From Deltaproteobacteria bacterium (GTDB lineage: Bacteria > Myxococcota_A > Polyangia > Haliangiales > Haliangiaceae): 64,000 bases of DNA. The stretch spans positions 1 to 64,000 of the forward strand of contig JAIOQA010000154.1 in the NCBI GenBank assembly GCA_021413675.1, in the 5' to 3' direction. Below are positions 5,422 through 42,469 of the stretch, piece by piece. Within the stretch, counting starts at the first letter, position 1. Each line of letters starts with the position of its first letter. Below the pieces are notes generated by a model. That model searched no databases, had not been told where the DNA came from, and saw nothing but the letters and a program-made list of their open reading frames with translations. A program made the translations under genes and the position numbers.

Positions 5422-5431
5422 GCGCGAGCGG

Positions 5432-7398: not shown

Positions 7399-7457
7399 TA
7401 CTAGATCGAGACGCGCGGACCGGGGCAACTTATTCGACGCCGCGGTGGCTTTCCTGC

Positions 7458-8858: not shown

Positions 8859-9763
8859 GGGCGCCTCCCCGCGTAGACGGTCGCCTCGGGGGCGCTCGCC
8901 AGCGTGAAGGTCCGGATGTCGGTCAGGCCCGCGTCGGTCATCCACGTGCGGATCGTCGCGGCGTCGTAGAGGTCGCCTTCGGCGGTGAAGATCGCCGCGC
9001 CCAGCGCGAAGAGGCAGGCGCGGAGCGCCTCGGCACCGCCGCGCGTCGGCTCCTTGATCCAGAGCTCGCCACCGGCCCGGAGCGTGTGCGCGACTCGCGC
9101 GACGAGCGTCGCGCCGGTGCGCGGACCATGCTCGTGCAACACGTTGTTGAGCAGCGCCACGTCCGCGAACGGCGCCGGCGCATACGCGACGAGATCGGCA
9201 GACACGGTCTCGAGCCGCGCGGCGTGGCGCGCGAGTCGCTGGCGCGCCATCGCGACCCGATCGGTGCGATCGACCAGCACGGCGCGGATCTCGGACGTCT
9301 CGGCGAGGAGGACCGCGAGGACGTCGCCCCACCCACCGCCGGCGTCGAGGCATGTGCCGGTGGTCGGCAAGGTCGTCGCGAGGCGCGCGCCGAGCTCACG
9401 CGCCGGCGCGCCCGTCGCGTCGCTCAGCAGGCCAGCGACCGAGAGCGCGGCGCTCTCGACCCGCAGCGACAGGCCATCTTGGTTCGGGTCGAACGGACGG
9501 TCTCGCTGGATGATCTGCGCGAGCAGCGCCGCGCCCGGCGCGCCGCGATCACCCGTGGGCCACCGATCGGCGGCGCGGACGCGCGCGTCCGCGTCCGCGA
9601 GCAACAGCCCTTCGAGCAGCAACCCATCGACCAGGCGCTGCAACCGTCGCGGCCCCCAGCTCTGGGCGCGGGCGACCGCGTCGACGTGCTGTGGCGCGGC
9701 GAAGTGCGCGGACAGCGCGAGTGCCTCGCCAGCGCCGCGGATGGCCGCACGCAACCGGTTCAT
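8855..9763 (-). CDS. Class I SAM-dependent methyltransferase, COMT-like
   Basis: A 302-residue methyltransferase. An N-terminal helical, winged-helix-like dimerisation part (about 1-140) precedes the Rossmann domain, with motif I LDAGGGWGDVLAVLL, an acidic VLVDRTDRV at the end of strand 2, and the post-motif NNVLHEHGPR that carries the His typical of plant-type O-methyltransferases. It probably methylates a small-molecule hydroxyl (inference). ATGA overlaps with both neighbours place it between a membrane protein gene and the FAD oxidase gene in one operon. Confidence 0.78.
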   Translation of the reverse strand: MNRLRAAIRGAGEALALSAHFAAPQHVDAVARAQSWGPRRLQRLVDGLLLEGLLLADADARVRAADRWPTGDRGAPGAALLAQIIQRDRPFDPNQDGLSLRVESAALSVAGLLSDATGAPARELGARLATTLPTTGTCLDAGGGWGDVLAVLLAETSEIRAVLVDRTDRVAMARQRLARHAARLETVSADLVAYAPAPFADVALLNNVLHEHGPRTGATLVARVAHTLRAGGELWIKEPTRGGAEALRACLFALGAAIFTAEGDLYDAATIRTWMTDAGLTDIRTFTLASAPEATVYAGRRP

Positions 9764-10527
9764 CGCGCCAGACCGAGAAACACCCGCAAGGTCGTGGCGG
9801 TCTCGTCGATCGCGCACTGCTGGCCCTTGCTCCGCCACTGCCGCACGACCGTGACGCGGCGCCCACCGGACAGGACCAGCGCCATGCCGACCGAGTAGAA
9901 GCTACCCGCCTGCGGGTCGACGCCGGTGATCTCGGACAGCGGCCACGCCTGGTCTGCCGAACGCAAGAGGCCGCGCGATCGCCAGCGAAGCTGGCCATCG
10001 TCGCGCGATGCGGTGATCGTGCCGCGCGTCCGCCACGCGAGGCAGAGCACGCCGAAGAAGCCGCACATGAAGGCGCTCGCCCAGTAGCCCATGTCGAAGT
10101 GGCGGATCGGTGCGGTGACCGCGAGGGAGGCGCCGTCGTGCGCCGCCGTGAACGCCGCGATCACCCGCGCGTTCTGCGCCACCTGCGCGCCGAGCTCGGG
10201 ATCGTGAAACGACTTGCCCAGCTCGCGCGTACCGGTCGTGAGATCGAGGGCGAGCACGGTGGCGCCGCTCGACGTCGTCGCGACATGCGCGCCCTGGAGC
10301 TGGTCGAGCGCGAACTCCTCGCGCGAGCTCGAGATCCGCGAGGCGCTCTCGATCGCACACCGCTTGCTCGTGCGGTCACAGGTCAGCGTCGCCTGGCTGG
10401 GGAGCGCGACCGCCACCCCGACCAGCCCCAGCGCGAGGAGGGGGAAGAAGACCGCGAACAACGTGAACAACCCGCCTGACCCGAAGCGCACCGTGAGCGT
10501 GCGATCGCCTTGCGTGGTCCTCAGCAC
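9760..10527 (-). CDS. Membrane protein with two helices, unknown function
   Basis: A 255-residue protein with one helix near residues 19-42 (LFTLFAVFFPLLALGLVGVA), an external-looking domain of about 110 residues, and a second hydrophobic stretch around MGYWASAFMCGFFGVLCLAW. The following 80 residues resemble a small PH-like domain (TITASRDDGQLRWRSRG ... WPLSEITGVDPQ). No family name is offered. Translation appears to start at GTG 10527. The stop overlaps the methyltransferase ATG by 4 bases. Confidence 0.6.
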   Translation of the reverse strand: MLRTTQGDRTLTVRFGSGGLFTLFAVFFPLLALGLVGVAVALPSQATLTCDRTSKRCAIESASRISSSREEFALDQLQGAHVATTSSGATVLALDLTTGTRELGKSFHDPELGAQVAQNARVIAAFTAAHDGASLAVTAPIRHFDMGYWASAFMCGFFGVLCLAWRTRGTITASRDDGQLRWRSRGLLRSADQAWPLSEITGVDPQAGSFYSVGMALVLSGGRRVTVVRQWRSKGQQCAIDETATTLRVFLGLAR

Positions 10528-10533
10528 AGGCGG

Positions 10534-11415
10534 TCAGTCCTGCCAGAGGATGAACGAGCCAGCGCTCTGGTTTCGAATGGGCAGCAGTTGCACCGAGTGG
10601 ACCAGCTGCATGAAGACGCCGCGGTTGGTGACGAGGTTGGCTTCGTCGCTCTCGAGCCGCAGCATGTACAGGTTGCGGCCATCGTCGAGAGCGCAGTTGT
10701 GCACCGTGCGCGTCACGCCACCGGGGAGGTGGCCGGTCACGATGGTGATCTGGCCGCGCAGGCCCGACCGGGTCACGACCTGCACCGGCGCCTGCGGCGG
10801 CCCGGGCGTGAAGTCCTGCGAGAGGTCTTCGAGCAGCATCCGATCCTGCAGGTGATCGAGCGACACCGCGCTCGGGCGAGCATCGAAGACCATGATGAGG
10901 CCGTGGTCCTTCGGGAAGTGCGGGGCCATCCAGGCCACGCCGCGGTGGATCCGCAGCCCGGCCCACCCCTGGGGCACGTCGTAGACGTAGGGGCGTCGCC
11001 GGTTGTCGCCGAGCCCTAGCGAGTAGTGCTTGGTGAGCCGCCGCACCACGCCGCGAACGCGCTCGCCCGCGACCGGATCGACCGCCGCGCCGTCGACCGC
11101 CGCGAAGAAGTCATCGCCGAAGATGACGCCGACGGTGCGGGTGACGAGGCGGCCGCCGACCGTCACGGAGATCGGGATAAGCGCCGCATACTCGCCTTCG
11201 TTGGTCTGGATGCGCTCGACCGGGCCTGCCTTGAAGTCCCGAGCGGACGCCGGCATCGTGCCGCGGAGTTGCGCGATCAGGGTGGCAATCGAGATCAGCG
11301 GTGTGTTCCGGGTCCGGACCCGGATCGTGCCGTTGTCTGGACCCTCGGGCGATGCGAGCAGGACGCCATCCGCCAGGATCGTACGCCGCCACCCGCTCAG
11401 CGACATGTCGCTCAT
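10534..11415 (-). CDS. Conserved hypothetical protein, possible double DcrB/DUF1795-like
   Basis: A 293-residue soluble protein without signal peptide. Two halves look related: each has a strand-rich layout with an internal YDVPQGWAGLRI- or GWRRTILADGVLLA-like beginning and a VGGRLVTRTVGVIF- or RTVHNCALDDGRNLYMLRLE-like middle. This recalls DcrB/DUF1795 folds, a family that includes chaperones of type VI effectors; the similarity is weak and by eye. It starts 36 bases from a divergent gene of similar flavour at 11452, suggesting the two work together. Confidence 0.55.
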   Translation of the reverse strand: MSDMSLSGWRRTILADGVLLASPEGPDNGTIRVRTRNTPLISIATLIAQLRGTMPASARDFKAGPVERIQTNEGEYAALIPISVTVGGRLVTRTVGVIFGDDFFAAVDGAAVDPVAGERVRGVVRRLTKHYSLGLGDNRRRPYVYDVPQGWAGLRIHRGVAWMAPHFPKDHGLIMVFDARPSAVSLDHLQDRMLLEDLSQDFTPGPPQAPVQVVTRSGLRGQITIVTGHLPGGVTRTVHNCALDDGRNLYMLRLESDEANLVTNRGVFMQLVHSVQLLPIRNQSAGSFILWQD

Positions 11416-11451
11416 TGCAATGCCTCGGCGCAGGGAGAGTATGATGCGCTC

Positions 11452-11931
11452 ATGGATCTGATTCTACCACTTCCGGGGGACTGGTCGGTTGAGTCGCGGG
11501 ACGGTACGCGGATCGCGCACGTCGCCGGCTCCAGCATCACCGTCACGATCGCGCCGCTGATCCCTCGCCCGGACGATCCGCGTCGCTGGGCGCAAGCGGC
11601 GGTCGTGGAGGCCTACCCGCGCGGCGCGGCGATCGAGGTCGTCCATTCCGCCGATGCGACCACCGATGACGGCTGGCCGTTGATCGTCATCCAGACGCAA
11701 GCGCAGCCGGGCGGCGCCCGTATCCACCTCTTCTATACGTTCCTGGTCTACGCGGGGTCCGTGTTGATCGCGGCACCCGACGGCACGACGCTCGACGCGC
11801 ATCGCGCCGCGCTCCTCGACCTCGCCGGCAAGGGCCGGCCGGACTTCGAGCGTGGCCCCGTCGCCCTCAGCCAGCTCTGGGCGGGCGTGGAGCTCCTCCC
11901 GAGCTCTTCCTCCGGTCCAGGAAGTACTTGA
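11452..11931 (+). CDS. Conserved hypothetical protein, DcrB/DUF1795-like
   Basis: A 159-residue soluble protein beginning MDLILPLPGDWSVESRDGTR. The early PLPGDW motif, the RWAQAAVVEAYPRG helix and the HLFYTFLVYAGSVLIAA strands resemble small DUF1795/DcrB-like proteins. The C-terminus is a Ser/Gly tail. An AGGGAGAG stretch at 11432-11439 could serve as ribosome binding site, with somewhat long spacing. It is divergent from the larger gene at 10534 and its last 65 bases overlap the convergent membrane protein gene, so at least one 3' end must be tolerant. Confidence 0.6.
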   Translation: MDLILPLPGDWSVESRDGTRIAHVAGSSITVTIAPLIPRPDDPRRWAQAAVVEAYPRGAAIEVVHSADATTDDGWPLIVIQTQAQPGGARIHLFYTFLVYAGSVLIAAPDGTTLDAHRAALLDLAGKGRPDFERGPVALSQLWAGVELLPSSSSGPGST

Positions 11932-12103
11932 TCGCGACGAGGATGCCGCCGGCGACGACGATCACGCCGACGATCCACGCGGTCACGATGTACGCGCCGC
12001 GCCGCTGCTCTGGTTTCAGGAACGGATAGATCACGATCGCGAGCACGATGATCGCGCCGAAGTTGATCGCGGCGCGGATGAGATACTGTCGTCGCGTTGC
12101 CAT
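11867..12103 (-). CDS. Small two-helix membrane protein
   Basis: A 78-residue protein with two predicted membrane helices (INFGAIIVLAIVIYPFL and AYIVTAWIVGVIVVAGGILVAI), a positively charged start (MATRRQYLIR) and a basic Pro/Gly-rich tail. Function unknown. The hydrophobic pattern is too regular to be chance, so I believe it is a gene despite a 65-base tail-to-tail overlap with the plus-strand gene ending at 11931. It could anchor or partner the adjacent DUF1795-like proteins (inference). Confidence 0.6.
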   Translation of the reverse strand: MATRRQYLIRAAINFGAIIVLAIVIYPFLKPEQRRGAYIVTAWIVGVIVVAGGILVAIKYFLDRRKSSGGAPRPPRAG

Positions 12104-12134
12104 GGCCGGACTCTAGCCCGATTCGAGGAAGCGA

Positions 12135-12824
12135 ATGCCGCTGCATGTAATCCAGCTGTTGACCAAGGAGGAGCTCGAGACCGTGCAGCGCACGATCGCG
12201 AGCGCGACGTTCGGCGACGGCGCCGTCACGAGCGGCGTCATCGCGCGACAGGCGAAACACAACCAGGAGCTCTCGCCGGAGGGTTCAGAGGGGGGGGCGC
12301 TGATCAACCAGATCTTGACCCGCGCCTTCTCGCGACACGCGATCTACCGCGCGTGGGCCCTGCCCCGCGAGAACACCGCCTTCATCGTGAATCGCTACGA
12401 AGAGGGCATGTACTACGACGACCACGTCGACAATGGCGTCCACGACTTCGGTGGCGGACGCTGGGTCCGCAGCGACCTCGCGATCACCGTGTTCCTGTCG
12501 GATCCGTCGACGTACGACGGCGGGGAGCTCGTGATCGACTCGGATCGCGAGTCCAACATGGTCAAGCTCCGCGTCGGCGAGGCGGTCGTCTATCCGGCGA
12601 CCTCGATCCACCGCGTCGAGCGGGTGCGCCGGGGCGTGCGGATCGCGGCGGTGTGCTGGGTCGAGAGCTTGATCCGCGACGGCGCCCAGCGCGCGTTGCT
12701 CTTCGACCTCGCGACGGTGATCGAGACCACGCTGCGCGAGGAGCCGACCCCCCAGCGCCAGAAGACGCTGACCAGCCTGTCGAAGGTGCGCCACAACCTC
12801 CTGCGCATGTGGGTCGATCGGTAG
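12135..12824 (+). CDS. PKHD-type Fe(II)/2-oxoglutarate dioxygenase (PiuC/YbiX-like)
   Basis: A 229-residue hydroxylase. The iron triad is visible: H97 and D99 in YYDDHVDN and H159 in ATSIHRVE, with R169 as the 2-oxoglutarate ligand. The N-terminus (MPLHVIQLLTKEELETVQR) and C-terminal helices (LTSLSKVRHNLLRMWVDR) match the PiuC/YbiX family in order and length. That family is often near iron-uptake genes, but here the neighbours are TfuA and YcaO, so a tailoring role on a peptide or on bound iron chelator is possible. It is the first of three different 2OG-oxygenase types within 8 kb. Confidence 0.88.
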   Translation: MPLHVIQLLTKEELETVQRTIASATFGDGAVTSGVIARQAKHNQELSPEGSEGGALINQILTRAFSRHAIYRAWALPRENTAFIVNRYEEGMYYDDHVDNGVHDFGGGRWVRSDLAITVFLSDPSTYDGGELVIDSDRESNMVKLRVGEAVVYPATSIHRVERVRRGVRIAAVCWVESLIRDGAQRALLFDLATVIETTLREEPTPQRQKTLTSLSKVRHNLLRMWVDR

Positions 12825-12857
12825 CTCGCGGCTGCCGCCCGACGCGCGGCCCCGCGA

Positions 12858-13532
12858 TCAGCCCGCGGTGGCCCAGGGGCGCGCCGCGACGAAGTCGATC
12901 AGGTCGAGGGCTTTCCAGCGATACGCGTCGAAGCTCGCCAGCCACGCGTTGACCCACGCCGGGCTGCTCGGGCACGACGCCACGACCGCATCACGGACGC
13001 GGGCGAGCGTCCGCTCGCCGTACCAGCACGCCGTGAGCTGCCCGAGGATGGCCACGTGCTCGTCGGAAGAGAGGCGGGCATCCGCGACGGCCGCGGCGAG
13101 CGCCGCGCGCACGTGCACGAGCGGCTCGCTGAGCTCGCGATACGGAGGCTCCGGCGCGTGCAGGAGCGCGACCTCGTCGTCCCGGAAGTCGTCGTCCTGG
13201 CAGTAGCGCTCGAAGACCCGCCCGAAGCCGCGCATCCCCAGGGGGTGCATCTCGCGCGCGCGGATCGCGCCCATCGACGACAGGCCCCAGATCTGCCAGC
13301 CCGATCGGATCGCATCGCGCAGCTCCGCGTGCCCCACCGCGAGGGACTCGTGGAACAGTCCGTCGACGAGGATCGCGCACCCGGCGGGGTGGCGCGCCGC
13401 CATCGCCGCGATGGTTCCACGCTCGGCGGGTGGCTCGAGGATGTAGGGCTCGAGATCGAGTGGCGCGATGGCGCGCGCGCGCGACAGCGTCGGGCCCGCG
13501 AACAGGAACGGTCGGACGTGGAGGCTGGGCAT
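12858..13532 (-). CDS. tfuA: TfuA-like protein, YcaO partner
   Basis: A 224-residue TfuA homologue. The start RPFLFAGPTLSR, the PPAERGTIAAMAA segment, ILVDGLFHESLAVGHAEL, then SSMGAIRAREMHPLGMRGFG and DDEVALLH are the family's conserved blocks. TfuA works with YcaO enzymes to thioamidate peptide backbones, delivering sulfur, as in methanogen McrA and thioviridamide-type RiPPs; it also occurs in the trifolitoxin cluster. Divergent from the YcaO gene starting 110 bases away. The ATG at 13532 is used since it directly precedes the conserved first strand. Confidence 0.9.
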   Translation of the reverse strand: MPSLHVRPFLFAGPTLSRARAIAPLDLEPYILEPPAERGTIAAMAARHPAGCAILVDGLFHESLAVGHAELRDAIRSGWQIWGLSSMGAIRAREMHPLGMRGFGRVFERYCQDDDFRDDEVALLHAPEPPYRELSEPLVHVRAALAAAVADARLSSDEHVAILGQLTACWYGERTLARVRDAVVASCPSSPAWVNAWLASFDAYRWKALDLIDFVAARPWATAG

Positions 13533-13642
13533 GGCGAGCGGCTCTACTCGCCATGGTAACCGTGCCAGCGCGCGAAGGGCAGGGACGCGACGTGCGCGCC
13601 CGCTCCTTGCCAAGCGCGGCGGGGCTGGGGAACATCACCGAG

Positions 13643-14869
13643 ATGGCGATCCGCACCAGCTCCAGCGTTCGTGACGTCGCGCTCGAGGTGACGTGGGCGC
13701 GGGCTCGCGCGCTCGCGCCGACGCTCGGGATCACGCGGATCACCGAGACGACGTGGCTCGATCGCGCCGGTGTCCCGGTGGCGGTCGCGATCCGCCCAGA
13801 CGCCGCGCCCGGCAGTCTGTGTGTCACGGCCGGCAAGGGCATGACCGTGATGGAGGCGATGGTCGGCGCCACGATGGAAGCGATCGAATACGCCTGGGCC
13901 GAGCACAACCGGGCGTCGTTGCGAGTGCATCGCCAGCCGGCATCGGCGGTGCTCGATGGCGCGACGCGACCGCACGCGCTGCTCGACCTGTGTCCGATCT
14001 GGGGCCAACCGATCGCGTTCGAGGCCGTGCTCGATTGTGTCGAGATGCACGACATCGTCACGGAAACGCCGATGCTGGTCCCCGCAGAGCTGGTGTTTCA
14101 CCCGTTCAAGCAGAATTCGGGACTCAGCTACTTCGGCACCAGCACCAACGGCTTGTGTTCGGGGAACACGGTGGAAGAAGCCACCGTGCACGGTCTGTGC
14201 GAGGTGGTCGAACGCGACGTCCTGTCGTTTCACCGCGTGCGTGGGCGCTCGCTGCTGGTCGACCCTGCCACGCTGCCGCCAGCGCTCGCCGCCCTCGCCG
14301 CGCGGCTCGCCGACACCGGCTTCGACCTGACGCTGCGCGCGCTGCCGAACCCGTTCCAGTTGCCATGCTACCTGGCGTTCTCGTCGGATCGCGAGCAACG
14401 CAGGATGACGCTCCCGGGGTCCGGCTGCCATCCCTCGCGCGAGATCGCCGCCACGCGCGCGATCTGCGAGACGCTCCAGGCGCGGCTCAGCTTGATCCAC
14501 GGCGGCCGTGACGACCTCGCGGGCTGGGCGCATCACGACGGGAAATCCCGCGATCAGGTCGAACGCGAGTATCACGAATTCCTGGCGGGGTTCGGGGCCG
14601 CGCCCGGTGCGGTCGCGTTCGACCAGACGTTCGTCGACGGGGCGGCGCTCGACACGGTCGGGGCGCTCCGGGCCGACATCCTGTCGCGGCTCACGGGCCA
14701 AGGGTTCGGGCGCGTGTTGCGCACGGTCTACACGCCGCGTGACTATCCGGTCCAGGTCGTGCGCGTCCTGGTGCCCGGGCTCGAGTTCTACAGTCGCGAG
14801 ACTCGTCGCCGGGGGCCGCGGCTCGCGGCCTTCATTCGATCGATGCCCCCGCCCCCGCAGCGGGGATGA
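13643..14869 (+). CDS. ycaO: YcaO-domain peptide backbone-activating enzyme
   Basis: A 408-residue YcaO protein, which uses ATP to phosphorylate a backbone amide oxygen so that a thiol or sulfide can attack. Family blocks in order: LGITRITETTWLDRAGVPV, SLCVTAGKGMTVMEAMVG, TMEAIEYAWAEHN, GTSTNGLCSGNTVEEATVHG with CEVVERD, and PGSGCHPSREIAATRAICET. The C-terminus ends SMPPPPQRG, proline-rich as in many cyclodehydratases but not a clean PxPxP. With TfuA next door, thioamidation is the first guess, azoline formation the second. The ATG at 13643 leaves 110 bases for divergent promoters; ATG 13553 is an alternative adding 30 residues. Confidence 0.92.
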   Translation: MAIRTSSSVRDVALEVTWARARALAPTLGITRITETTWLDRAGVPVAVAIRPDAAPGSLCVTAGKGMTVMEAMVGATMEAIEYAWAEHNRASLRVHRQPASAVLDGATRPHALLDLCPIWGQPIAFEAVLDCVEMHDIVTETPMLVPAELVFHPFKQNSGLSYFGTSTNGLCSGNTVEEATVHGLCEVVERDVLSFHRVRGRSLLVDPATLPPALAALAARLADTGFDLTLRALPNPFQLPCYLAFSSDREQRRMTLPGSGCHPSREIAATRAICETLQARLSLIHGGRDDLAGWAHHDGKSRDQVEREYHEFLAGFGAAPGAVAFDQTFVDGAALDTVGALRADILSRLTGQGFGRVLRTVYTPRDYPVQVVRVLVPGLEFYSRETRRRGPRLAAFIRSMPPPPQRG

Positions 14870-14882
14870 GCGCGGGGGCTCG

Positions 14883-14994
14883 GCTCAGAGCCTGTGAAGC
14901 TTTCGCTTCCAGGCTCTCTCTCGATCGATCGGCCCCGTCGAGGACGACGGTCCCGATCTCATCCGGACCCTGAGCCGGCGACTTCGTCGCCTCA
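14883..14994. repeat. Structured intergenic repeat, copy A
   Basis: This roughly 110-base element recurs at 42470-42580 and 43580-43693. Shared landmarks: a hairpin around AGCTTTCGCT flanked by AGCCTG/CAGGCT (14889-14915), a central GATCGATCGGCC (14922-14933), a CCCGATCTCATCCGGA-like block, and a terminal hairpin TGAGCCGGCGAC-TTC-GTCGCCTCA. The last four bases CTCA supply the stop codon of the minus-strand methyltransferase gene. It lies between two convergent genes and could terminate both. Likely a REP-like mobile palindrome (inference). Confidence 0.8.
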
Positions 14995-16053
14995 CGTGCG
15001 GGTCGCGACCACGAGCCACGAGCTGACGCGATTGGTGACCATGCTCGCGTTGGGCCACACCTCGTGGTCGAGCCACGCCTCGCGGCGGATCTGGAATCCG
15101 TTCTCCGCCAGGTGGTGCCGGCTCTCCTCGACGGTCCACATCTCGGCCGGCTCGTAGCGGGCGTAGCCGAGCGGCCCGAAGTGCATCAGTGTCCCGCCGC
15201 GCGGCAACAGCGCGTGCGCGACGCGGAGCAGCTGGGGAAATCCGACGATGTCCGTGAAGAACGACGAGAGCAGCAGGTCCGCGTGCTGTCGGAGGATCGG
15301 CGGACGCAACGCGTCGGCGACGCACGTGATCACGTTGGGCGCGGCGGGGCGGTGCAGCGTGATCTCCGGGCAGAGGTCCGCGATCGCGCGGGCGTTGGAC
15401 TCGAGGGGATCACACGCGACGAGATCGCTCGACGCGAGCAGCGCGTTGGTCGCGCCGAACGCGACCTCGAGATCGATCGCGACCACCTCCGCGCAGCGCT
15501 CGCGAAGCTCCCACCCGATCCGCCCGGCACCCGCGCCGAGGCACACGGCGCGCGTCTTTGGACCGAGGTCGCCACACCCGTCGCGGATGATCGTGGCGAC
15601 CTGCGCCAGCATCTGCTCGCTGCGCGCCCGCCATCCCCAGTCCGTGACCAGGTGACGAACGATCGCGTTGAGGTTGAGGCCACCCGCGTGGCGGGGCCCG
15701 CCGTCGAGGTCGCCGGCAGGGTCCGCCGGCCCCGGGCCCAGCGCCTCGCTGATCAGCGCCAGCCAGGCTTCCAGCAGCACCAGATTGCGCTGCAATCCGG
15801 TGCTGATCCGCGACAACGCCTCCGGGTCGCGTGCGCGCTGCGTACGCAGCTCGTCGAATCCGACCAGCGCACTCCGCATCATCGACGCGTGACGACCGTA
15901 ACGCGCGCGAGACGCACGAAGATGTACCTGCGGGTCGACGACCAGCACCGGCACGACCCCAGCCAGGACCGGGAACTGCGCGCCGCATGCGCAGCGTATG
16001 GACCGCCCACTCGTTGCAGCGAGAATGTCACCGCAACGGGGGCAGGCGAGCAT
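14992..16053 (-). CDS. Zinc-ribbon methyltransferase, N2227-like
   Basis: A 353-residue protein. The N-terminus is a zinc ribbon (CPRCG ... CACG, residues 4-23). A helical part (MMRSALVGFDELRTQRARDP, then LQRNLVLLEAWLALISEAL) is followed by a Rossmann methyltransferase with motif I VCLGAGAGRIGWEL, acidic VVAIDLEV, and a late HFGPLGYARYEPAEMWTVEE block. The layout recalls N2227/carnosine N-methyltransferase-like enzymes. Next to YcaO it may N- or C-methylate the peptide product (inference). Its stop codon lies inside a dispersed repeat. Confidence 0.75.
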   Translation of the reverse strand: MLACPRCGDILAATSGRSIRCACGAQFPVLAGVVPVLVVDPQVHLRASRARYGRHASMMRSALVGFDELRTQRARDPEALSRISTGLQRNLVLLEAWLALISEALGPGPADPAGDLDGGPRHAGGLNLNAIVRHLVTDWGWRARSEQMLAQVATIIRDGCGDLGPKTRAVCLGAGAGRIGWELRERCAEVVAIDLEVAFGATNALLASSDLVACDPLESNARAIADLCPEITLHRPAAPNVITCVADALRPPILRQHADLLLSSFFTDIVGFPQLLRVAHALLPRGGTLMHFGPLGYARYEPAEMWTVEESRHHLAENGFQIRREAWLDHEVWPNASMVTNRVSSWLVVATRT

Positions 16054-16062
16054 CCGCCGGGA

Positions 16063-16554
16063 CTACCAGCTCGTGACGGTGTCCCACGCGGACGACGCAG
16101 CGCCGCCGATGGCCGCGCCGGCGTCAGCGACACCGTGCTCGATACCACCGACCACGGAACCAGCCGAGAAGCTGTAGTCGTCGCCGAGGACCGCACCCGA
16201 CAGGGCGCCGAGTCCGTTGAGGGCCAGTTCGCCTGCGCCGAGGTAGAGCGCGGCGGGCGGGCAGAACGAGGCGGCGGCACCAGCGCCACCGAGCGTCGCT
16301 TCACCCATCTCGGTGTAGAACTCGTTGTTGGCGTACGAACCCTGGGCCTGGTCCGTGTGCTGCATCATCTCGTAGCCGTGGTAGGCCGCCTGCCCGCCAC
16401 CGATCGCGGCTCCGAGGAACGGCAGCGCCTTGCCTACGGTCGCGCCAACGCCGCTGTGCATCAGCGGCTCTGCGAAGTGCTCCGCAACGTGCGCTGCCGG
16501 CAAGATGTACTTCTCGAGGAAGCCTCCGGCGCCTCCACCTTCATGTTCAGCCAT
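16063..16554 (-). CDS. Gly/Ala-rich glycine-zipper protein, candidate pathway substrate
   Basis: A 163-residue protein starting MAEHEGGGAGGFLEKY, with a good GGGAGA ribosome binding site. It is dominated by Gly and Ala with two hydrophobic glycine-zipper stretches (VGKALPFLGAAIGGGQAAYH; LGGAGAAASFCPPAALYLGA) and ends AAIGGAASSAWDTVTSW. One Cys. No signal peptide. I do not recognise a family. It lies 9 bases after the zinc-ribbon methyltransferase gene on the opposite reading order (upstream in the operon) within the YcaO region, so it could be a large precursor or a pore-forming bacteriocin-like substrate. A type VI or toxin-like secreted protein is the main alternative. Confidence 0.6.
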   Translation of the reverse strand: MAEHEGGGAGGFLEKYILPAAHVAEHFAEPLMHSGVGATVGKALPFLGAAIGGGQAAYHGYEMMQHTDQAQGSYANNEFYTEMGEATLGGAGAAASFCPPAALYLGAGELALNGLGALSGAVLGDDYSFSAGSVVGGIEHGVADAGAAIGGAASSAWDTVTSW

Positions 16555-16608
16555 GGGTCGTCTCCCGCTCTGTGGGTGAAAAGAGAAACTGCTGCACGTA
16601 CTACGGGG

Positions 16609-16617
16609 CCCCCCCCC
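16609..16617. repeat. C9 homopolymer tract in divergent promoter region
   Basis: A run of nine C between two divergent start codons (16554 and 16697), preceded by ACGGGG and followed by GT so that ACGGGG/CCCCGT can pair around it. Runs this long are rare elsewhere in the window. In other bacteria such tracts in promoters vary in length and switch expression; whether this one varies cannot be seen from a single sequence. Confidence 0.7.
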
Positions 16618-16696
16618 GTGACCTTCCCGTACGATATTGGAATTGCCGCAGGGGATCCAGTGGTGCGGGAACGTGTTGTAGTTCAGGCGGTTGCCC

Positions 16697-17494
16697 ATGG
16701 AAGATGACGACCCACTCCCGCGCCTCGCGGCGCTCATCCACGAGATCGCGGCTGATCTGGGCGCGTTGCCGCCTGGCCTGCGCGATCCCGTGCGCAAGGA
16801 TCTCCGGCAGTTCCTCCAGCGCGCGGCGGCGATGGCCGGCGCGGTGCGTGCTCTGCACGGGAGCCAGGTCGCGGGGCAGCTCGAGCGGCTCACGCAGGAT
16901 CTCACGCAGGATCTGCGGATCGCGATCACCGGCACGGCGCCGCCCCCGTGGATCACGGTCGGCTTCCCCCCTGCCACGGTCGTCGCCAACCTCGGGCGCG
17001 GCCTGCCGTTCCAGAACGGCGCGGCGCGCTACGTCTACTTCGCGCTCGCGCTCGAGCACTTCTTCTATCCGGGGCAGGCGCAGTTCCTGGTCCGCGAGAT
17101 CCGCCGCGTGCTCGCGGACGACGGCGCGGTGCGAATCGTGGTGCCGGACATCGGCGCGTATGCCCGGGCGTATGCCCGCGACGACCGCACGTTCTTCGAA
17201 GGCCATCGCCGTTACTGGGACTGGGCAGAGAAGGTGCGTACTCCGATGGAGTTTCTGCAGGTGATGTCCGGCGCCGGCGGCGGTCGCGGGCACAGCGACT
17301 TCTTCGGCCACAAGAACGGCTACGACTTCGAGACGCTGGAGATGCTGCTCCACGACAACGGCTTCCGCACGGTCGAGCGGGTCGCGTATCGCGAGGGCGC
17401 GATCGCCGAGCTCATCCTGGACGAGTACAGCCACGACGCCGGCTTCGCGTGCGGGGACGAGTCGTACAGCCTGTTTGTGGAGGCGCGTCCGTGA
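16697..17494 (+). CDS. Methyltransferase-like protein with an altered SAM loop
   Basis: A 265-residue protein. The first 75 residues are a helical extension. The remainder follows the predicted SAM-methyltransferase family whose core reads GLPF...YxxxxLEHF...REIRRVLxDDGAVRIVVPDI; here ARYVYFALALEHFFYPGQA and REIRRVLADDGAVRIVVPD are clear. The position of the usual glycine-rich SAM loop reads AITGTAPPPWITVG, without LNLGCG. It may therefore bind another ligand or be a non-catalytic partner. AGGCGG at 16685-16690 supports the ATG at 16697. It precedes the PhyH gene closely, in one plus-strand operon. Confidence 0.72.
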   Translation: MEDDDPLPRLAALIHEIAADLGALPPGLRDPVRKDLRQFLQRAAAMAGAVRALHGSQVAGQLERLTQDLTQDLRIAITGTAPPPWITVGFPPATVVANLGRGLPFQNGAARYVYFALALEHFFYPGQAQFLVREIRRVLADDGAVRIVVPDIGAYARAYARDDRTFFEGHRRYWDWAEKVRTPMEFLQVMSGAGGGRGHSDFFGHKNGYDFETLEMLLHDNGFRTVERVAYREGAIAELILDEYSHDAGFACGDESYSLFVEARP

Positions 17495-17555
17495 GTCGGT
17501 GTATCGTCGGGCAGTGCACGCCGACGAGATCGTGGCCCGCGCGAGAGATCGAAGC

Positions 17556-18377
17556 ATGTGGCGCCGGATGTCGCCGTGGATGACGGTCGAGGGTGATGCG
17601 GAGGCGCTGGAGCCGTTTCCGCTCCCGGGCTCGCTCCGCCATCGCATGGTGCACGATGGCTACGCGCAGCTCGCCGATGTCGTGCCGGCGGCCTTCACCG
17701 CGAACCTCGCGTCGACCGTCGTCAACCTTCGCCAGCGCGGCATCCCGCCGATCTTCGTGTTCGTCTACGACCAGTTCTGGCAGCTCGCGCGTCGGTTCGA
17801 GCGACTGCTCGACGACATCGTCGGCGCCGGCCACGTCATGTTGCCCAACGTGTGGACGTGGTACGTCGACCCCGCGGCGAGCGAGTCCGGCTGGGCGCCG
17901 CATCGCGATCGGAAACCGGACACGCTGCTGCCCGACGGCATGCCCAAGGCCGTGTCCGTGTGGGTGCCCCTGACCGACGCTGACCCGACCAACGGCTGCA
18001 TGTACGTGGTCCCGGCGTACCTGGATGCCGATTATCAACAGCGCGAGTTCACCAAGCTGCGCTGCGCGCTCCACGACGCGCGCGCGCTGCCCGCCACCGC
18101 TGGATCGTTCCTGTGCTGGACGCAAGCGCTGGCCCACTGGGGCGGTCGGTCGAGCGACCTCGCGCGGCATCCGCGGATCAGCATCGGGCTGGAGTTCCAG
18201 CGCGGCGACAGCGAGCCCTACGACTTCCCGCGCGTGCGGCGCGTGCCGCCGTCATTCGAGGAGCGGCTCGCGCTGATCGCCAAGATGATCTACCTGTACT
18301 GGACCCGCGCGAACATGCCGCGACCGTACATGGAGGTCGCGATCCGGCTCGGCCAGCAGCTGGCCCGGTTCGCGTGA
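17556..18377 (+). CDS. Phytanoyl-CoA dioxygenase (PhyH)-like Fe(II)/2OG oxygenase
   Basis: A 273-residue oxygenase. The facial triad is HRD in SGWAPHRDRKP plus the distal His in ALAHWGGRSS; HPRISIGLEF offers the Arg for 2-oxoglutarate. KAVSVWVPLTDADPTNGCMY is the usual PhyH core. PhyH enzymes hydroxylate or chlorinate many small molecules and peptide side chains. ATG 17556 (after GAGAGATCGAAGC) is preferred; in-frame GTGs at 17514 and 17499 would extend it. The stop overlaps the GTG of the next gene (GTGA), so the two are translationally coupled. Confidence 0.82.
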   Translation: MWRRMSPWMTVEGDAEALEPFPLPGSLRHRMVHDGYAQLADVVPAAFTANLASTVVNLRQRGIPPIFVFVYDQFWQLARRFERLLDDIVGAGHVMLPNVWTWYVDPAASESGWAPHRDRKPDTLLPDGMPKAVSVWVPLTDADPTNGCMYVVPAYLDADYQQREFTKLRCALHDARALPATAGSFLCWTQALAHWGGRSSDLARHPRISIGLEFQRGDSEPYDFPRVRRVPPSFEERLALIAKMIYLYWTRANMPRPYMEVAIRLGQQLARFA

Positions 18378-19435
18378 GCTCGCCGCTCCCGCCGCTGTAC
18401 GCCGCGTGGATCGACGCGCTGCTCGGCGGGACCCTGCCGAGCGAGGTGCGCGCGACCTGCGACGCGTGCGCGATGGCGCCGCGCGCGGACGATCCGCCCG
18501 GCGAGCGCCGCTTCGATCCGGGCCTCAAGTGCTGCACCTTCTATCCCGACCTGCCGAACTTCTCCGTCGGTGCGATCCTCGCCGATCCGAGCGCCAGCGG
18601 GCGCCGGGAGATCGATCGTCGCTTCGGGCTCGGCGCCGGCATCACGCCCCTCGGGATGACGCGCCCGACGGTGTATCAGCTGGTGTTCGCGCAGGGCGGC
18701 AACGCGTTCGGGCGGAGCAACGCGCTGCGGTGCGGCTTCCTCGATGCCGGCGGGCGCTGCGGGATCTGGGCGCATCGCGAGTCGACCTGCGTGAGCTACT
18801 ACTGCAAGTTCGAGCGCGGCGCGATCGGGCGCAACCTGTGGCGTGCGCTCCAGGACCTGCTGGGCTCGATCGAACGCCAGCTCGCGCAATGGTGCGTGCT
18901 CGAGCTGGACCCCGGCGGCGCCGCGATCGCGTCGCTGTTTCGCGCGCCGAGCGCACCGGCGTTCGGGCATCGCGCGCTCGACGGCGTCGGTGATCCCGCC
19001 GAGCTGCGCCTCGTCTGGGGCACGTGGGCGGGACGCGAGCGCGAGTTCTTCGCGCGCGCGCACGCGCTCGTGCGCGGGCTGACCTGGGCGCGCGTCCTCG
19101 AGGTGTGTGGGCCGGAGGTCGCGGGCCGCGCGAAGGTCCTCGTCGCCGCGTACCAGCGCCATGGCGACCCGACGGTGCCGGACTCCCTCCGACTCGGCCC
19201 GCATCAGGTCACGCCGCTCGACGCCCACCGCGTCTGGCTGCGCGGCTACAGCACGATCGATCCCGTCGAGGTCGCCCCGGCGGAGGCCGCCGCGTTGACC
19301 GCGTTCGACGGTCGACCGACCGAGGTCGTCGTCGCGGAGCTGGCGGCGCGCGGCGTCCCGATCTCGTCGACGCAGATCACGCGGCTGGCGGAGTTCGAGG
19401 TGCTGATCCCGGCGTCCACGCTCGTCCGCAGGTAG
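18374..19435 (+). CDS. Cysteine-rich protein of unknown function, possible wHTH tail
   Basis: A 353-residue protein with clustered cysteines: CDACAM (about 31-36), KCCTFY, RCGFLDAGGRCGIW and STCVSYYCKF. The spacing suggests a metal or Fe-S centre, somewhat like YkgJ-type cysteine-cluster proteins, though not a clean match. The final 80 residues (ALTAFDGRPTEVVVAELAAR ... LAEFEVLIPA) look like a small winged-helix of the kind found in PqqD/RRE peptide-recognition domains; this is by eye only. Start is GTG overlapping the PhyH stop. Context suggests a role in handling the peptide or delivering metal or sulfur. Confidence 0.65.
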   Translation: MSSPLPPLYAAWIDALLGGTLPSEVRATCDACAMAPRADDPPGERRFDPGLKCCTFYPDLPNFSVGAILADPSASGRREIDRRFGLGAGITPLGMTRPTVYQLVFAQGGNAFGRSNALRCGFLDAGGRCGIWAHRESTCVSYYCKFERGAIGRNLWRALQDLLGSIERQLAQWCVLELDPGGAAIASLFRAPSAPAFGHRALDGVGDPAELRLVWGTWAGREREFFARAHALVRGLTWARVLEVCGPEVAGRAKVLVAAYQRHGDPTVPDSLRLGPHQVTPLDAHRVWLRGYSTIDPVEVAPAEAAALTAFDGRPTEVVVAELAARGVPISSTQITRLAEFEVLIPASTLVRR

Positions 19436-19440
19436 CGGCG

Positions 19441-20043
19441 CTACCCCCGCACGCGCGTCAGGAAGTACACCTGGATCAGGCGGCCGGTCGCCAGGTCATG
19501 GCCGAACTCGTCGTGTGGCGAGTGGAACATGGACGCCGAGAACAGGATCAGGCGGTTGGGGACGAGCGGGACCTGCATCTGCAGCTCCCACTTGTCCTTG
19601 TCGTTGCTGTCGGGCGCGAATTGCTCGCGGAGCAGGCGCGCCCGCTCGACGGGATCCGCGGGCGCGGCGAGCAGCCCGGTCGGCCGGTGCTTCCAGAAGC
19701 ACGTGCCAATGCGACCGTCGCACTGCGCCTGGGTGTTCAGGTAGATGACCGCGGAGAGCTGGGTCGCGTCGATGTGCACGTTGCGAGGGCGTTCGTCACC
19801 CGCCACCGTGCTCCGGAAGTGCCCGGACCCGATGTCGGGTGTGAAGGCCACCGGGCTCCCGGCGATCACGGTCAGCTTCTCGAGGGCCTCGCGCGTGCCG
19901 AACGACCGGCGCGAGTTGCGGCCGGGGTACTTGCCGCTCTGGGGCGTCTTGACGCCATCTTCGTACTCGGCGGCAAGCGCGGTGGCGCGGATCGCCTCGA
20001 AGTCGTCGTAGAAGTCGTCGACCACGGTGAGGGCCATCCGCAT
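19441..20043 (-). CDS. DUF6445-like Fe(II)/2OG oxygenase
   Basis: A 200-residue protein resembling the DUF6445 branch of 2OG oxygenases. It has the HxD pair in NVHIDATQLSAVIYLN, a GTCFWKHRPTG block, and SASMFHSPHDEFGH with the distal His, then GRLIQVYFLTRV carrying the co-substrate Arg. The first strand is TVVDDFYDDFEAIRATAL. ATG 20043 follows AGGATGCGGTC; ATG 20037 is possible. It is convergent with the cysteine-rich gene, 5 bases apart, and lies in the same minus-strand unit as the GT-B-like and radical SAM genes. Confidence 0.78.
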   Translation of the reverse strand: MRMALTVVDDFYDDFEAIRATALAAEYEDGVKTPQSGKYPGRNSRRSFGTREALEKLTVIAGSPVAFTPDIGSGHFRSTVAGDERPRNVHIDATQLSAVIYLNTQAQCDGRIGTCFWKHRPTGLLAAPADPVERARLLREQFAPDSNDKDKWELQMQVPLVPNRLILFSASMFHSPHDEFGHDLATGRLIQVYFLTRVRG

Positions 20044-20057
20044 GACCGCATCCTAGC

Positions 20058-21266
20058 TCAGCTGCGCACGCGATCGAACGCGTCGGCGGGCGAGGGGAGC
20101 GCCCGGACCTGGCGTGCGTACGCCTGCTGGTGCTGGCGTTGCGCGTCGGCGACGGCGGGCTCGAACAGCAGCTGGGCGCACGTCTGGCGGAGGCCGGGCA
20201 GGTCGAGCACCTCGGCGGACGCGAACGTCGCGCAGTACGGATTGCCGGCGAAGACCGGGCCCAGGAAGTCGTGGAGCCCGAGCGGCCACACGCGAAAGCG
20301 CTGGTGCGACGGCTTCAGCGCGAGCCATCGCCGCACCTCCGGCGAGGGCGGGCTGGGCAGCGCGGCGGCGATCTCGTCCGGCGTGCCGGCGAACGAGTTG
20401 GTCGCGATCACCACCGGTAGCTGGTTTGCGATCGCTGCGCCGACGGTCGTCGCCGACAGGTTGAGGCTGAGGAGCAGATCACCGGCCGCCAGGAACTCGG
20501 CGAAGCGAGGGGCCGGCACCGGCGCTTGCCAGTGGTAGCGATCGCCGAGCGCGGTGGCGCCGAACGCCTCGGGCCCGACGTGCAGCACCCGCACGCGCGG
20601 GCCCAGCGTCGCGAGGTGGTCGAACAGCACGCGCGGCAGCATCGCGGCCGCCTCGGCGCTCACGGCATCGGGCTGCGCGCGCGGGCGCTGCCAGGTCGCC
20701 GTGGTCGTGATCAGCAGGCGATCCTCATCGGCCAGCCCGAGCCGCGCGCGCGCCTTGGTGCGATCGACGCGCGCGCCCGCGGGCAGCGCGTCGTAGCCGC
20801 CCGCCACGTCTGGCGCGACGAACGGCACCGGCACCAGGCGCCGCTCGACCGCGAGCGCCTCGCGCGGCAGGTCCCAGCGCGCGCCGAGCGCATCCCACAC
20901 CAGATCGGTCGCGGGCAGGTTCCAGACATCGAGCGCGAGCACCGGGACCGGCATGGCGCGCAGGAACGTCGCGGCCCGGCCGTGCAACGAGAGCGACAGA
21001 AAGACGCTCGCGAGATCGACGAGCACGAGGTCGTCGCAACGCTCGGCGGCCAGGAGGTCGAGGACCGCGAGATCGACGCGCGTCGCGATCGCATCGGTCA
21101 AGCCCACGCGGAACGGCGCGTCCTTGAGCACGACCGAGAGGCTCGACGGCGCGAGGAAGAGGATGCGATCGCCGCGCGCGTGGAGCGCCTCCGCGAGCCG
21201 CAACCCGAGCACGGCTTCACCGAACGCGCCGTTGCCCATCGCGAGGAACAGGTGAGTCCGCGGCAC
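20058..21266 (-). CDS. GT-B-like (glycosyltransferase-like) protein
   Basis: A 402-residue protein with the two-Rossmann GT-B layout: LFLAMGNGAFGEAVLGLRLA at the start, a middle VRVLHVGPEAFG, and FLAAGDLLLSLNLSATTVGA with GAAIANQLPVVIATNSFAG near the C-terminus, where nucleotide-sugar enzymes carry their donor site. It may be the DUF6365 family, but I am unsure. Function inferred: sugar transfer or a related group transfer in the same pathway. The GTG start overlaps the last base of the radical SAM stop codon, so it is translated immediately after it. Confidence 0.65.
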   Translation of the reverse strand: MPRTHLFLAMGNGAFGEAVLGLRLAEALHARGDRILFLAPSSLSVVLKDAPFRVGLTDAIATRVDLAVLDLLAAERCDDLVLVDLASVFLSLSLHGRAATFLRAMPVPVLALDVWNLPATDLVWDALGARWDLPREALAVERRLVPVPFVAPDVAGGYDALPAGARVDRTKARARLGLADEDRLLITTTATWQRPRAQPDAVSAEAAAMLPRVLFDHLATLGPRVRVLHVGPEAFGATALGDRYHWQAPVPAPRFAEFLAAGDLLLSLNLSATTVGAAIANQLPVVIATNSFAGTPDEIAAALPSPPSPEVRRWLALKPSHQRFRVWPLGLHDFLGPVFAGNPYCATFASAEVLDLPGLRQTCAQLLFEPAVADAQRQHQQAYARQVRALPSPADAFDRVRS

Positions 21267-23389
21267 TACACCAGCACCATGCCATGAGGACGAAACGGTT
21301 CGAACCAGGTGGGGTCGTCGAAATCGGCCGTCCGAGGCCCGACCGCGGAGCGCCAGGCCTGCGCGCGGCACCATGACAGCTGATCGGCGATCGTGCGCGG
21401 CACCTGGAAGCGGAGTTGCTCGCCTCGGTCGCTGGCGACGGTCAGCCAGCCGTTGGCCCAGAACGGCCGGCCACCCAGCCAGCACAGCCGCGTCTGCTCG
21501 CCGGCTGGTTCCGCGGCGGCGAGCACGTCGGTGACGAAGTCCGGCGCGACCGTGGGCGCCGGCAACCGGGCGCTGGTGAACCAGTCACGCACGTCGCGCT
21601 CGAGGTCCTTGCCGCGCGCGTACTGGCGCAACGCCGCGGTCAGCGCCGCGAGGATCCACTCGTGGTCCGGTGGTACCGCGACCCGTTGATAGTCGAGGTT
21701 GTAGCGCGCGAATCCCTGGAACCGGCGCTCCGCGACCCGGATGCCGAAGCGATCCGGGGTCCGCCCGACCGGCGCATGGGCGGTCGCCGAGAAGTGGTGG
21801 AAATACCCCGACTGCAGGATTCGCGCGCGCGTCATCTGCCGCAACAGCTCGAGGCTGTTGATGGTGTCCTGGGGCGTCTCGCCGGGAAAGCCGTAGATGA
21901 GATACGCGTGCGTCCGCACGCCCGCGCGGGTCATGCCGTGCAGCACGCGGATCACCTGCTCGACGGTGATCCCCTTCGCGATGAGCGCCAGCAGCCGATC
22001 GCTGGCGACCTCGATCCCTCCCGTGACCGCCACCAGGCCCGCGGCCGCGAGCAGGCGACTGCGATCGGGCGTGAACCCAGGATCGAACCGGACGTTGCCG
22101 TAGAACTGATACCCGCGCTGGCGGCGGCGCAGCTCGAGGGCGAGGTTGGTCAGGAGCGGCGGTGGGATCGCCTCGTCGGTGAAATGAAACGAAGCCAGCC
22201 CGGTCTGGGCCGCCATCGCGTCCATCTGATCGGCGATCGCCGCGGCAGGCAGTGGATCGAAGTCCTGGATGTACGGCAGGTGAATGTCGCAGAACGTGCA
22301 CTTCTTCCAGTAGCAGCCGTGCGCCGCCGTGAGCTTGAGCCACGGGCCTTCGTCGGCCGTCCGGAACACCGGGTTGAGCGTGCTGATCGGCTGGATGTAC
22401 TGGCGCAAGTCGATGCCGCCGTAGTCCGGCGCCGGCAACTCGCGAAACCGCGGCGCGCGCGCGTCCGCGCCGGCGTGCCAGATCACCGTGGTGGCCTCGC
22501 GCGCGAAGGTGCGCACGAGCGGCGCCGTGGGGTCGGTGGTCAGGCGGGCGCAGATCTGCTGCAGCGGGACTTCGCCATCGTCGAGCACGACATAGTCGAC
22601 GTGATCGAACACGCGCGCCTCGGTCAGCGAGCGCAGCTCGGTCGACGGGTATCCTCCGCCGAGCGCCCGCGCCGCGCGGGGGCGGTGCCGCGCGGCCCAC
22701 GCACCGAGGCGAAAGGCTCCGAGCACGTTGCCCGGGAACGGACACGTGAAGCCCACGAGGTCGACGTCCCTCGGGATGAGCACCTCGGCGGCCTCCTCCA
22801 GCATCGCCTCGACCACGTTGGGTGGTCGCGCGATCTCGGCAGCGAGCGGATCGAAGCTCGATGCCGACGACGCCAGGCGGTCGCCGTACGTCGTCATCCC
22901 GAAGAGCGGCGCTACCGTGTGCTGGATGAGGTATCCGAGATCCTGGATCATCCGCGATGCCAGGTACCGCGCGCGGTCGCCATGGCCGTACGTCCCGAAG
23001 AGCTCGTCGTAGGTCTCGGGATCGTGCCGCCGGTAGCCGGGGCCTCGCGGCAAGCGGTCCACGAGCCTGAGCGCGAGCGACGCGTCGCGACCCTGCAGCA
23101 GCCGGATCGCGTCGTCGATCGTGTCCGCGTACCGATCGCGGTCGACGTAGAGCGGCGCGAGCTCGCTCGTCAGCTGCTGGCGATCGATCGCGTCGAACAC
23201 GCGCTCGATGCCGGCCCGGCTGAAGACCCGCAGGAACAGCTCGATGCTGAGATCGATCGGCGTCACCTCGTGGCCGAGCTGACGCAGCCAACCGCTGAGT
23301 CGCGGCAACGCGGCGTAGGCCGTGTTGAGGTTCGACATCGGCGGCACGATGACGGCGATCTTCAGCACGCTGCGAACGCCGGCGCTCAT
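21266..23389 (-). CDS. B12-binding radical SAM protein
   Basis: A 707-residue enzyme. The N-terminal 200-340 residues include a cobalamin-binding-type Rossmann region (VDLVGFTCPFPGNVLGAFRL ... ALGGGYPSTE, DYVVLDDGE). The radical SAM core follows with cysteines C359, C364 and C367 in GCYWKKCTFCDIH, that is C-x4-C-x2-C, not the usual C-x3-C-x2-C. TGGIEVASDRLLALIAKGI and YLIYGFPGETPQDT are standard later motifs. A C-terminal 150-residue domain is present. Such enzymes methylate unreactive carbons in natural products, or build RiPP crosslinks. ATG 23389 is preferred to GTG 23398. It leads an operon with the GT-B-like and DUF6445-like genes. Confidence 0.88.
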   Translation of the reverse strand: MSAGVRSVLKIAVIVPPMSNLNTAYAALPRLSGWLRQLGHEVTPIDLSIELFLRVFSRAGIERVFDAIDRQQLTSELAPLYVDRDRYADTIDDAIRLLQGRDASLALRLVDRLPRGPGYRRHDPETYDELFGTYGHGDRARYLASRMIQDLGYLIQHTVAPLFGMTTYGDRLASSASSFDPLAAEIARPPNVVEAMLEEAAEVLIPRDVDLVGFTCPFPGNVLGAFRLGAWAARHRPRAARALGGGYPSTELRSLTEARVFDHVDYVVLDDGEVPLQQICARLTTDPTAPLVRTFAREATTVIWHAGADARAPRFRELPAPDYGGIDLRQYIQPISTLNPVFRTADEGPWLKLTAAHGCYWKKCTFCDIHLPYIQDFDPLPAAAIADQMDAMAAQTGLASFHFTDEAIPPPLLTNLALELRRRQRGYQFYGNVRFDPGFTPDRSRLLAAAGLVAVTGGIEVASDRLLALIAKGITVEQVIRVLHGMTRAGVRTHAYLIYGFPGETPQDTINSLELLRQMTRARILQSGYFHHFSATAHAPVGRTPDRFGIRVAERRFQGFARYNLDYQRVAVPPDHEWILAALTAALRQYARGKDLERDVRDWFTSARLPAPTVAPDFVTDVLAAAEPAGEQTRLCWLGGRPFWANGWLTVASDRGEQLRFQVPRTIADQLSWCRAQAWRSAVGPRTADFDDPTWFEPFRPHGMVLV

Positions 23390-23466
23390 CACTGCCACGA
23401 TACCAGCTCAGGCCGTTCGCGCGCGGCTGGCATCGCGAATCGCCGCGCCACTGCCCGGCTCGCCCG

Positions 23467-24006: not shown

Positions 24007-24030
24007 GCGCGGAGCGTAGCACCCGCGCGG

Positions 24031-42434: not shown

Positions 42435-42469
42435 CCGCGCACACGCTCGCGTCCAGCGCATCGGCGCGC

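What the first reader, a model, noticed from the sequence alone, without database searches (positions are those of the whole stretch)
16063..16554. 163-residue Gly/Ala-rich protein as the possible substrate
It is the only non-enzymatic small protein in the YcaO region, sits next to a methyltransferase gene, and has two glycine-zipper hydrophobic stretches and no signal peptide. If modified, it would be a much larger substrate than usual, like proteusin or linear azole precursors. It could instead be a bacteriocin-like pore former or a secreted toxin component.
Basis: partly seen in the sequence, partly recalled or inferred. Interest (0 to 1): 0.6.

Follow-up and report, generated by a model that had tools for sequence, protein, structure and literature searches.

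The report
Orphan Gly/Ala-rich protein beside YcaO-TfuA
A small, almost arginine- and lysine-free, glycine/alanine-rich protein family with three copies, found only in this bacterium's genome, sits each time among enzymes that chemically modify proteins or natural products (twice beside a sulfur-inserting YcaO-TfuA pair), so it may well be the protein those enzymes modify, but no modification has been shown.

Summary
The 163-aa ORF at 16063-16554 (minus strand) is a real gene: ATG with a ribosome-binding site, Gly+Ala 39%, only 2 Lys and no Arg, pI 4.4, no domain match. It has two diverged paralogs in the same genome (C102, 239 aa, 47%; C563, 253 aa, 34%). No relative was found in several hundred genomes of its phylum, in two scans of 84,980 genomes, or in plasmids and phages. 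The three copies lie in different tailoring-enzyme loci: the window (YcaO, TfuA, B12-rSAM, methyltransferases, 2OG oxygenases, DUF6365), C563 (a second YcaO-TfuA 6 kb away, plus an MNIO enzyme), and C102 (0.8 kb from DUF6365, no YcaO seen, contig cut). The genome has only three YcaO-TfuA pairs; the third has an ordinary short precursor and no such gene. The window locus has no credible short precursor ORF. Its YcaO and TfuA are closest to McrA-glycine thioamidation models, so a whole-protein substrate is plausible. Against this, the family has no leader/core layout, and one copy lacks a visible YcaO. A neighbour, 11452-11931, models weakly like Eag chaperones that hold GxxxG helices, so an unmodified pore former or delivered protein is the main rival.

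The parts
16063..16554 (-). P0001, 163-aa acidic, K/R-depleted, Gly/Ala-rich protein; candidate substrate or protein product
   Evidence: paralogs C102:16714-17433 and C563:85-846
14992..16053 (-). Methyltransferase with a CxxC/CxC zinc-ribbon-like N-terminus, co-directional with P0001 (9-bp gap); weak matches to the OvoA C-terminal methyltransferase model and CARME
16555..16696 (.). Divergent intergenic region between P0001 and the next methyltransferase; presumed promoters
   Evidence: layout only
13553..14869 (+). YcaO (start codon uncertain), thioamide (McrA-glycine) type by best model
   Evidence: Pfam 213.6 bits; TIGR03266 204.9 bits, below cut-off; nearest solved structure MJ1094
12858..13532 (-). 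TfuA
   Evidence: PF07812 118.9 bits; NF033432 124.7 bits, below cut-off
12135..12824 (+). 2OG-Fe(II) oxygenase, PKHD-type
16697..17494 (+). Putative methyltransferase
   Evidence: weak PF08241
17514..18377 (+). PhyH-type dioxygenase
   Evidence: PF05721
18374..19435 (+).
   Evidence: sub-threshold CxxCxxCC; no PDB match
19441..20043 (-). DUF6445
   Evidence: PF20043
20058..21266 (-). DUF6365; paralogs at C102 and C135
21266..23389 (-). B12-binding radical SAM enzyme, paralog of a widespread stand-alone enzyme of the phylum
11452..11931 (+). 159-aa protein, possibly of DUF1795/Eag (PsbP-like) fold
   Evidence: low-confidence model, top Foldseek hits EagT6 (6xrf, 1tu1); homolog at C102
10534..11415 (-). 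293-aa protein divergent from 11452-11931 (36 bp); same pair divergent at C102 (35 bp); homolog at C135

Best explanation
P0001 is most likely the protein scaffold of a genome-specific kind of modification cluster: a helical, acidic, Gly/Ala-rich polypeptide that neighbouring enzymes modify, with YcaO-TfuA probably replacing one or more backbone amides (most likely at glycines) by thioamides, and methyltransferase, oxygenase or DUF6365 enzymes adding more. The modified protein would then insert into or cross membranes, perhaps as a pore-forming antagonist. Shown: the gene, its paralogs, their placement, the enzyme families, the lack of another precursor. Inferred: that P0001 is the substrate, the site, the order of steps, the activity.
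For: Three copies only, and the P0001-like gene is the only gene family found shared by the window, C102 and C563 loci. Two of three copies lie near two of the only three YcaO-TfuA pairs in 10.8 Mb; chance of the second about 0.005 under uniform placement. The C102 copy starts 0.8 kb from DUF6365 (chance about 0.0015), a gene found in none of the other genomes among 110 relatives. The third YcaO-TfuA (C424) has its own short precursor and no P0001-like gene. No credible short precursor ORF in the window cluster. YcaO and TfuA best models are McrA-glycine thioamidation, and YcaO is known to act on whole proteins (McrA, PMC5589413, abstract; uL16, PMC13063428). Many invariant glycines.
Against: No leader/core layout: conservation is central and C-terminal, and the N-terminus varies in length. 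The C102 copy has no YcaO on the 16 kb to its left (only 1.4 kb held to its right). The C563 copy is 6 kb from YcaO with housekeeping genes between. Twenty stretches around TfuA genes of relatives have no P0001-like gene, so YcaO-TfuA does not depend on it. All association rests on one genome, the co-location odds are post hoc, and contigs are short.
Confidence: 0.4

Rival explanations
1. P0001 is an unmodified membrane-active or delivered protein. Its GxxxG/A helices are kept soluble by Eag-like (DUF1795-fold) chaperones such as 11452-11931 and perhaps 10534-11415, then exported by an unknown, non-T6SS route. YcaO-TfuA serves another target.
For: The 159-aa protein models (pLDDT 49) with EagT6 (6xrf, 1tu1) as the top three fold matches (best E 0.04, probability 0.80), with DcrB, SciW and PsbP also in the list. 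Eag chaperones bind helices with GxxxG/A holes (PMC7773334). The divergent 159/293-aa pair is conserved at the window and C102, both with P0001-like genes. Extreme K/R depletion and predicted all-helical structure. An eCIS-core protein is encoded 11 kb from the C563 copy.
Against: No prePAAR motif or PAAR domain in any copy. No VipB/TssC in the genome. The fold match is below significance on a poor model, and the Pfam scan found no DUF1795 match. No such pair was seen at C563.
Confidence: 0.3
2. P0001 is an accessory protein of these clusters (scaffold, carrier, immunity or storage protein), and YcaO-TfuA acts on a housekeeping protein or on a short precursor encoded elsewhere.
For: YcaO-TfuA pairs in relatives also lie without obvious short precursors beside kinase, PAAR and DUF2345-like genes. 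YcaO is known to modify uL16 and McrA (PMC13063428, PMC5589413). A short precursor-like ORF that no family model recognises is present at C424.
Against: No short precursor candidate in the window cluster. An accessory role does not explain why this is the gene common to otherwise different enzyme sets.
Confidence: 0.2
3. P0001 lies beside YcaO by chance.
For: Single-genome association; in C563 housekeeping genes separate it from YcaO.
Against: Recurrence at a second YcaO-TfuA pair and next to DUF6365 would be expected with odds of about 0.005 and 0.0015.
Confidence: 0.07

Closest known systems
McrA-glycine thioamidation by YcaO-TfuA (methanogens; PMC5589413)
   Same: YcaO and TfuA best-scoring NCBIfam models are TIGR03266 and NF033432; substrate would be a whole protein rich in glycine
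   Different: Scores are below both curated cut-offs; substrate unproven; the other two YcaOs of the genome also score best on this model, including C424, which has a short precursor
Thioamidated RiPPs (thioamitides, thiovarsolins; PMC6511847, PMC8120280)
   Same: Adjacent YcaO and TfuA with further tailoring enzymes
   Different: No short precursor in the cluster; the candidate is 163-253 aa and has no leader/core layout
Proteusin and other large-precursor RiPPs
   Same: Large candidate precursor; B12 radical SAM enzyme whose best NCBIfam model is rSAM_ocin_1 (99.7 bits, below cut-off 281.85)
   Different: No Nif11 or NHLP leader match; the radical SAM enzyme is a paralog of a widespread stand-alone enzyme
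T6SS prePAAR effectors with Eag (DUF1795) chaperones (PMC7773334)
   Same: GxxxG/A helices; a nearby protein whose model looks Eag-like
   Different: No prePAAR, no PAAR, no toxin domain, no VipB in the genome
Class II microcin-like bacteriocins (from general knowledge)
   Same: Gly/Ala-rich with GxxxG repeats and few basic residues
   Different: Much longer; no double-glycine leader motif; no family match; no type I secretion genes recognised nearby by eye

Membership tests
YcaO-TfuA (thioamidated) RiPP cluster | Adjacent YcaO and TfuA genes | tested here: met
   YcaO 13553-14869 and TfuA 12858-13532, full-length Pfam matches, divergent neighbours
YcaO-TfuA (thioamidated) RiPP cluster | Short precursor with leader and core nearby | tested here: not met
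   no credible small ORF; control at C424 shows one
YcaO-TfuA (thioamidated) RiPP cluster | Thioamide on the proposed substrate | not testable with these tools
   needs mass spectrometry
McrA-type protein-glycine thioamidation | YcaO and TfuA over the curated cut-offs of TIGR03266 and NF033432 | tested here: not met
   204.9 against 365 and 124.7 against 235.2; best-scoring models but below cut-off
Proteusin / Nif11 precursor | Nif11 or nitrile-hydratase-like leader | tested here: not met
   no Pfam or NCBIfam match
T6SS prePAAR effector | AARxxDxxxH motif and PAAR domain | tested here: not met
   motif absent in all three copies; no PAAR in P0001 and C102 by Pfam, none in C563 by NCBIfam
T6SS prePAAR effector | T6SS sheath (VipB/TssC) in the genome | tested here: not met
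   no match in an assembly 92% complete
Eag chaperone (for 11452-11931) | DUF1795/DcrB family or fold | tested here: inconclusive
   no Pfam match; Foldseek best E 0.04, probability 0.80 on a pLDDT-49 model
Pore-forming bacteriocin | Membrane permeabilisation | not testable with these tools
   needs expression and an assay

The most novel reading that the evidence does not exclude
P0001 and its paralogs are a new class of large, Arg/Lys-poor, glycine-zipper proteins that are thioamidated by YcaO-TfuA and further tailored, kept soluble by Eag-like chaperones outside any T6SS, and released as modified membrane-active proteins.
Probability: 0.2. Interest if true: 0.8.

Novelty: new variant of a known kind. 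Interest (0 to 1): 0.5.

Why it matters
Outside RiPPs, the whole-protein substrates of thioamide-forming YcaO that I met here are McrA and uL16. A dedicated, expanded family of 160-250-aa helical substrates in a bacterium would widen what YcaO-TfuA can do and would suggest mining criteria other than short precursors. If the Eag-like chaperone link holds, it would also put that chaperone fold outside type VI secretion.

Tried and rejected
Homologue searches in 115 relatives, 318 class and 379 phylum genomes (overlapping sets), two genome-contig scans, plasmids and phages gave only the three own-genome copies; the weak hits were inspected and are chance. The two genome-contig scans used the same two peptide patterns, so they are close to one test. 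Pfam, PHROGs, NCBIfam, PADLOC and PDB gave no informative match. The B12 radical SAM enzyme was first read as RiPP-specific, but 58 of 379 phylum genomes (this one included) have a match and the ones examined stand alone, so it was dropped as evidence. DUF6365 gave no related cluster in relatives; on a Streptomyces plasmid it sits in a polyketide-type cluster. A short hidden precursor was sought and not found. No Rfam match in 8000-24500. A profile comparison did not show 10534-11415 to be a duplicated 11452-11931. Classical T6SS delivery was rejected.

Full report
Observation. Translation of 16063-16554 on the minus strand gives 163 residues and a stop. The ATG follows GGGAG. The longer TTG ORF upstream runs antisense into the next methyltransferase, is rich in arginine and has no counterpart in the paralogs. 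The protein has 31 Gly, 33 Ala, 2 Lys, 0 Arg, pI 4.4 and GRAVY 0.21. K+R is 1.2%, against a mean of 10.8% for 122 proteins called from the same genome; the C563 copy, the only one of the family listed from that pool, was the lowest of all. Hydrophobicity is mild: only one 19-residue window region, best at 105-123, exceeds 1.2, with a mean of 1.28.

Family. A whole-genome search found a second copy at C102:16714-17433 (239 aa, 47% identical) and a third at C563:85-846 (253 aa, 34%). The shared motif is L-P-x-L-G-x(3)-G-G ... D-Q-x(4)-Y ... N-x-F ... G-x-A-T-x-G, followed by E-H-x(3)-D. All three are depleted in Lys/Arg (binomial 2e-6, 7e-5 and 2e-6) and acidic (pI 4.0-4.6). Nothing similar was found in 115 relatives, 379 phylum genomes, 318 class genomes, two scans of 84,980 genomes, or in plasmids and phages. 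Weak hits in those lists were read and are chance. Pfam, PHROGs, NCBIfam, PADLOC and PDB are silent or show sub-threshold noise.

Surroundings. P0001 and the methyltransferase 14992-16053 form a likely operon (9-bp gap). Within 12-23.4 kb lie a PKHD-type 2OG oxygenase, TfuA, YcaO, a second putative methyltransferase, PhyH, a Cys-rich 353-aa protein, DUF6445, DUF6365 and a B12 radical SAM enzyme. The YcaO is nearest to MJ1094 in the PDB, and its best NCBIfam model is the McrA-glycine thioamidation YcaO (204.9 bits) rather than the azoline-forming SagD model (96 bits). TfuA's best model is the McrA-glycine thioamidation TfuA. Both are below the curated cut-offs, so this shows likeness, not membership.

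Own-genome comparison. The assembly has exactly three TfuA and three YcaO matches, paired at C182 (window), C563 and C424. C563 carries YcaO-TfuA, an MbnB/TglH/ChrH-type MNIO enzyme, another B12 radical SAM enzyme and PhyH, about 6 kb from a P0001 paralog, with serine-dehydratase, kinase and aminotransferase genes (named by eye) and the MNIO gene between. C424 has YcaO-TfuA and a short ORF, MTKKQNNRNAKPAALTLKTEAVKRLTSNMLKDVAGGMIPLTRHSACATACTDC, with the layout of an ordinary RiPP precursor, and no P0001-like gene in 20 kb. C102 has a P0001 paralog that starts 0.8 kb from DUF6365, next to a polysaccharide pyruvyl transferase, with a HipA-like gene at the contig end, and no YcaO on the part held. 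C135 has DUF6365, the B12 radical SAM enzyme, an FAD oxidase and the 293-aa homologue, but its contig is cut. P0001 is the only family found shared by the window, C102 and C563. Under uniform placement the second YcaO association has odds of about 0.005 and the DUF6365 association about 0.0015. These figures were formed after seeing the data.

Is there another precursor? A scan for ORFs of 18-160 aa outside called genes found no candidate in the window cluster with both a ribosome-binding site and a sensible composition.

What speaks against a substrate. The alignment shows no conserved N-terminal leader with a variable core. One of three copies has no YcaO in view. In 20 stretches around TfuA genes of relatives no P0001-like gene exists. 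Some of those pairs (L060, L063, L066) lie by PAAR genes, DUF2345-like genes (L060, L066) and methyltransferases with a Trm112-like N-terminus (by model at L060, by eye at the others), so YcaO-TfuA in this family of bacteria seems to work in several settings.

Chaperone lead. The 159-aa protein 11452-11931 was folded from its sequence alone with low confidence (pLDDT 49), yet the three best PDB matches are EagT6 chains (6xrf G and H, 1tu1), with DcrB, SciW and PsbP lower in the list. Eag chaperones bind helices with GxxxG/A holes (PMC7773334). The 159-aa and 293-aa genes are divergent with a 36-bp gap here and a 35-bp gap at C102, both times near P0001-like genes. However, Pfam shows no DUF1795 match, no copy of P0001 has prePAAR or PAAR, and no VipB/TssC was found in the genome. 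An Eag-like role outside T6SS is a lead only.

Verdict. A real, apparently genome-restricted protein family tied to modification clusters. Substrate of YcaO-TfuA is the single likeliest reading (0.4). An unmodified membrane-active protein with its own chaperone (0.3) and an accessory role (0.2) remain open. Mass spectrometry of co-expressed P0001 would decide.

Noticed in passing
window 14885-14992, 42464-42578, 43578-43674; C102 (L011) 515-632: A dispersed intergenic repeat of about 110 bp (81-94% identity to the C102 copy) occurs three times in the window and once near the left end of C102; one copy fills the gap between YcaO and the methyltransferase. No Rfam match for that copy.
   Followed up: partly
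L031 (C424) 328-2874: A separate YcaO-TfuA pair with a short precursor-like ORF (LTLKTEAVKRLTSNMLKDVAGG leader-like part, SACATACTDC end); no Pfam or NCBIfam match for the ORF.
   Followed up: partly
L024 (C563) 4887-9406: MNIO (MbnB/TglH/ChrH) gene, a neighbouring reading frame with a Cys/Gly-rich tail (GCSSGCSSGCSGGGGCGGGCGGGCGGCS), and YcaO-TfuA in one locus.
   Followed up: no
L024 (C563) 11564-16921: 1785-aa protein with an eCIS core domain and a C-terminal ubiquitin hydrolase (UCH) domain beside the YcaO-TfuA locus.
   Followed up: no
L060, L063, L066 (relatives in one genus): YcaO-TfuA pairs near PAAR genes and methyltransferases, with DUF2345-like genes at L060 and L066; one paper search found no description of such a link.
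   Followed up: partly
window 20058-21266, 10534-11415, 7458-8858, 21266-23389; C102; C135: Three partly paralogous clusters in one genome, marked by DUF6365, which no other genome among 110 relatives has.
   Followed up: partly
window 21266-23389: B12 radical SAM enzyme with an extended C-terminus relative to a widespread stand-alone paralog (58 of 379 phylum genomes match at E 1e-60).
   Followed up: partly
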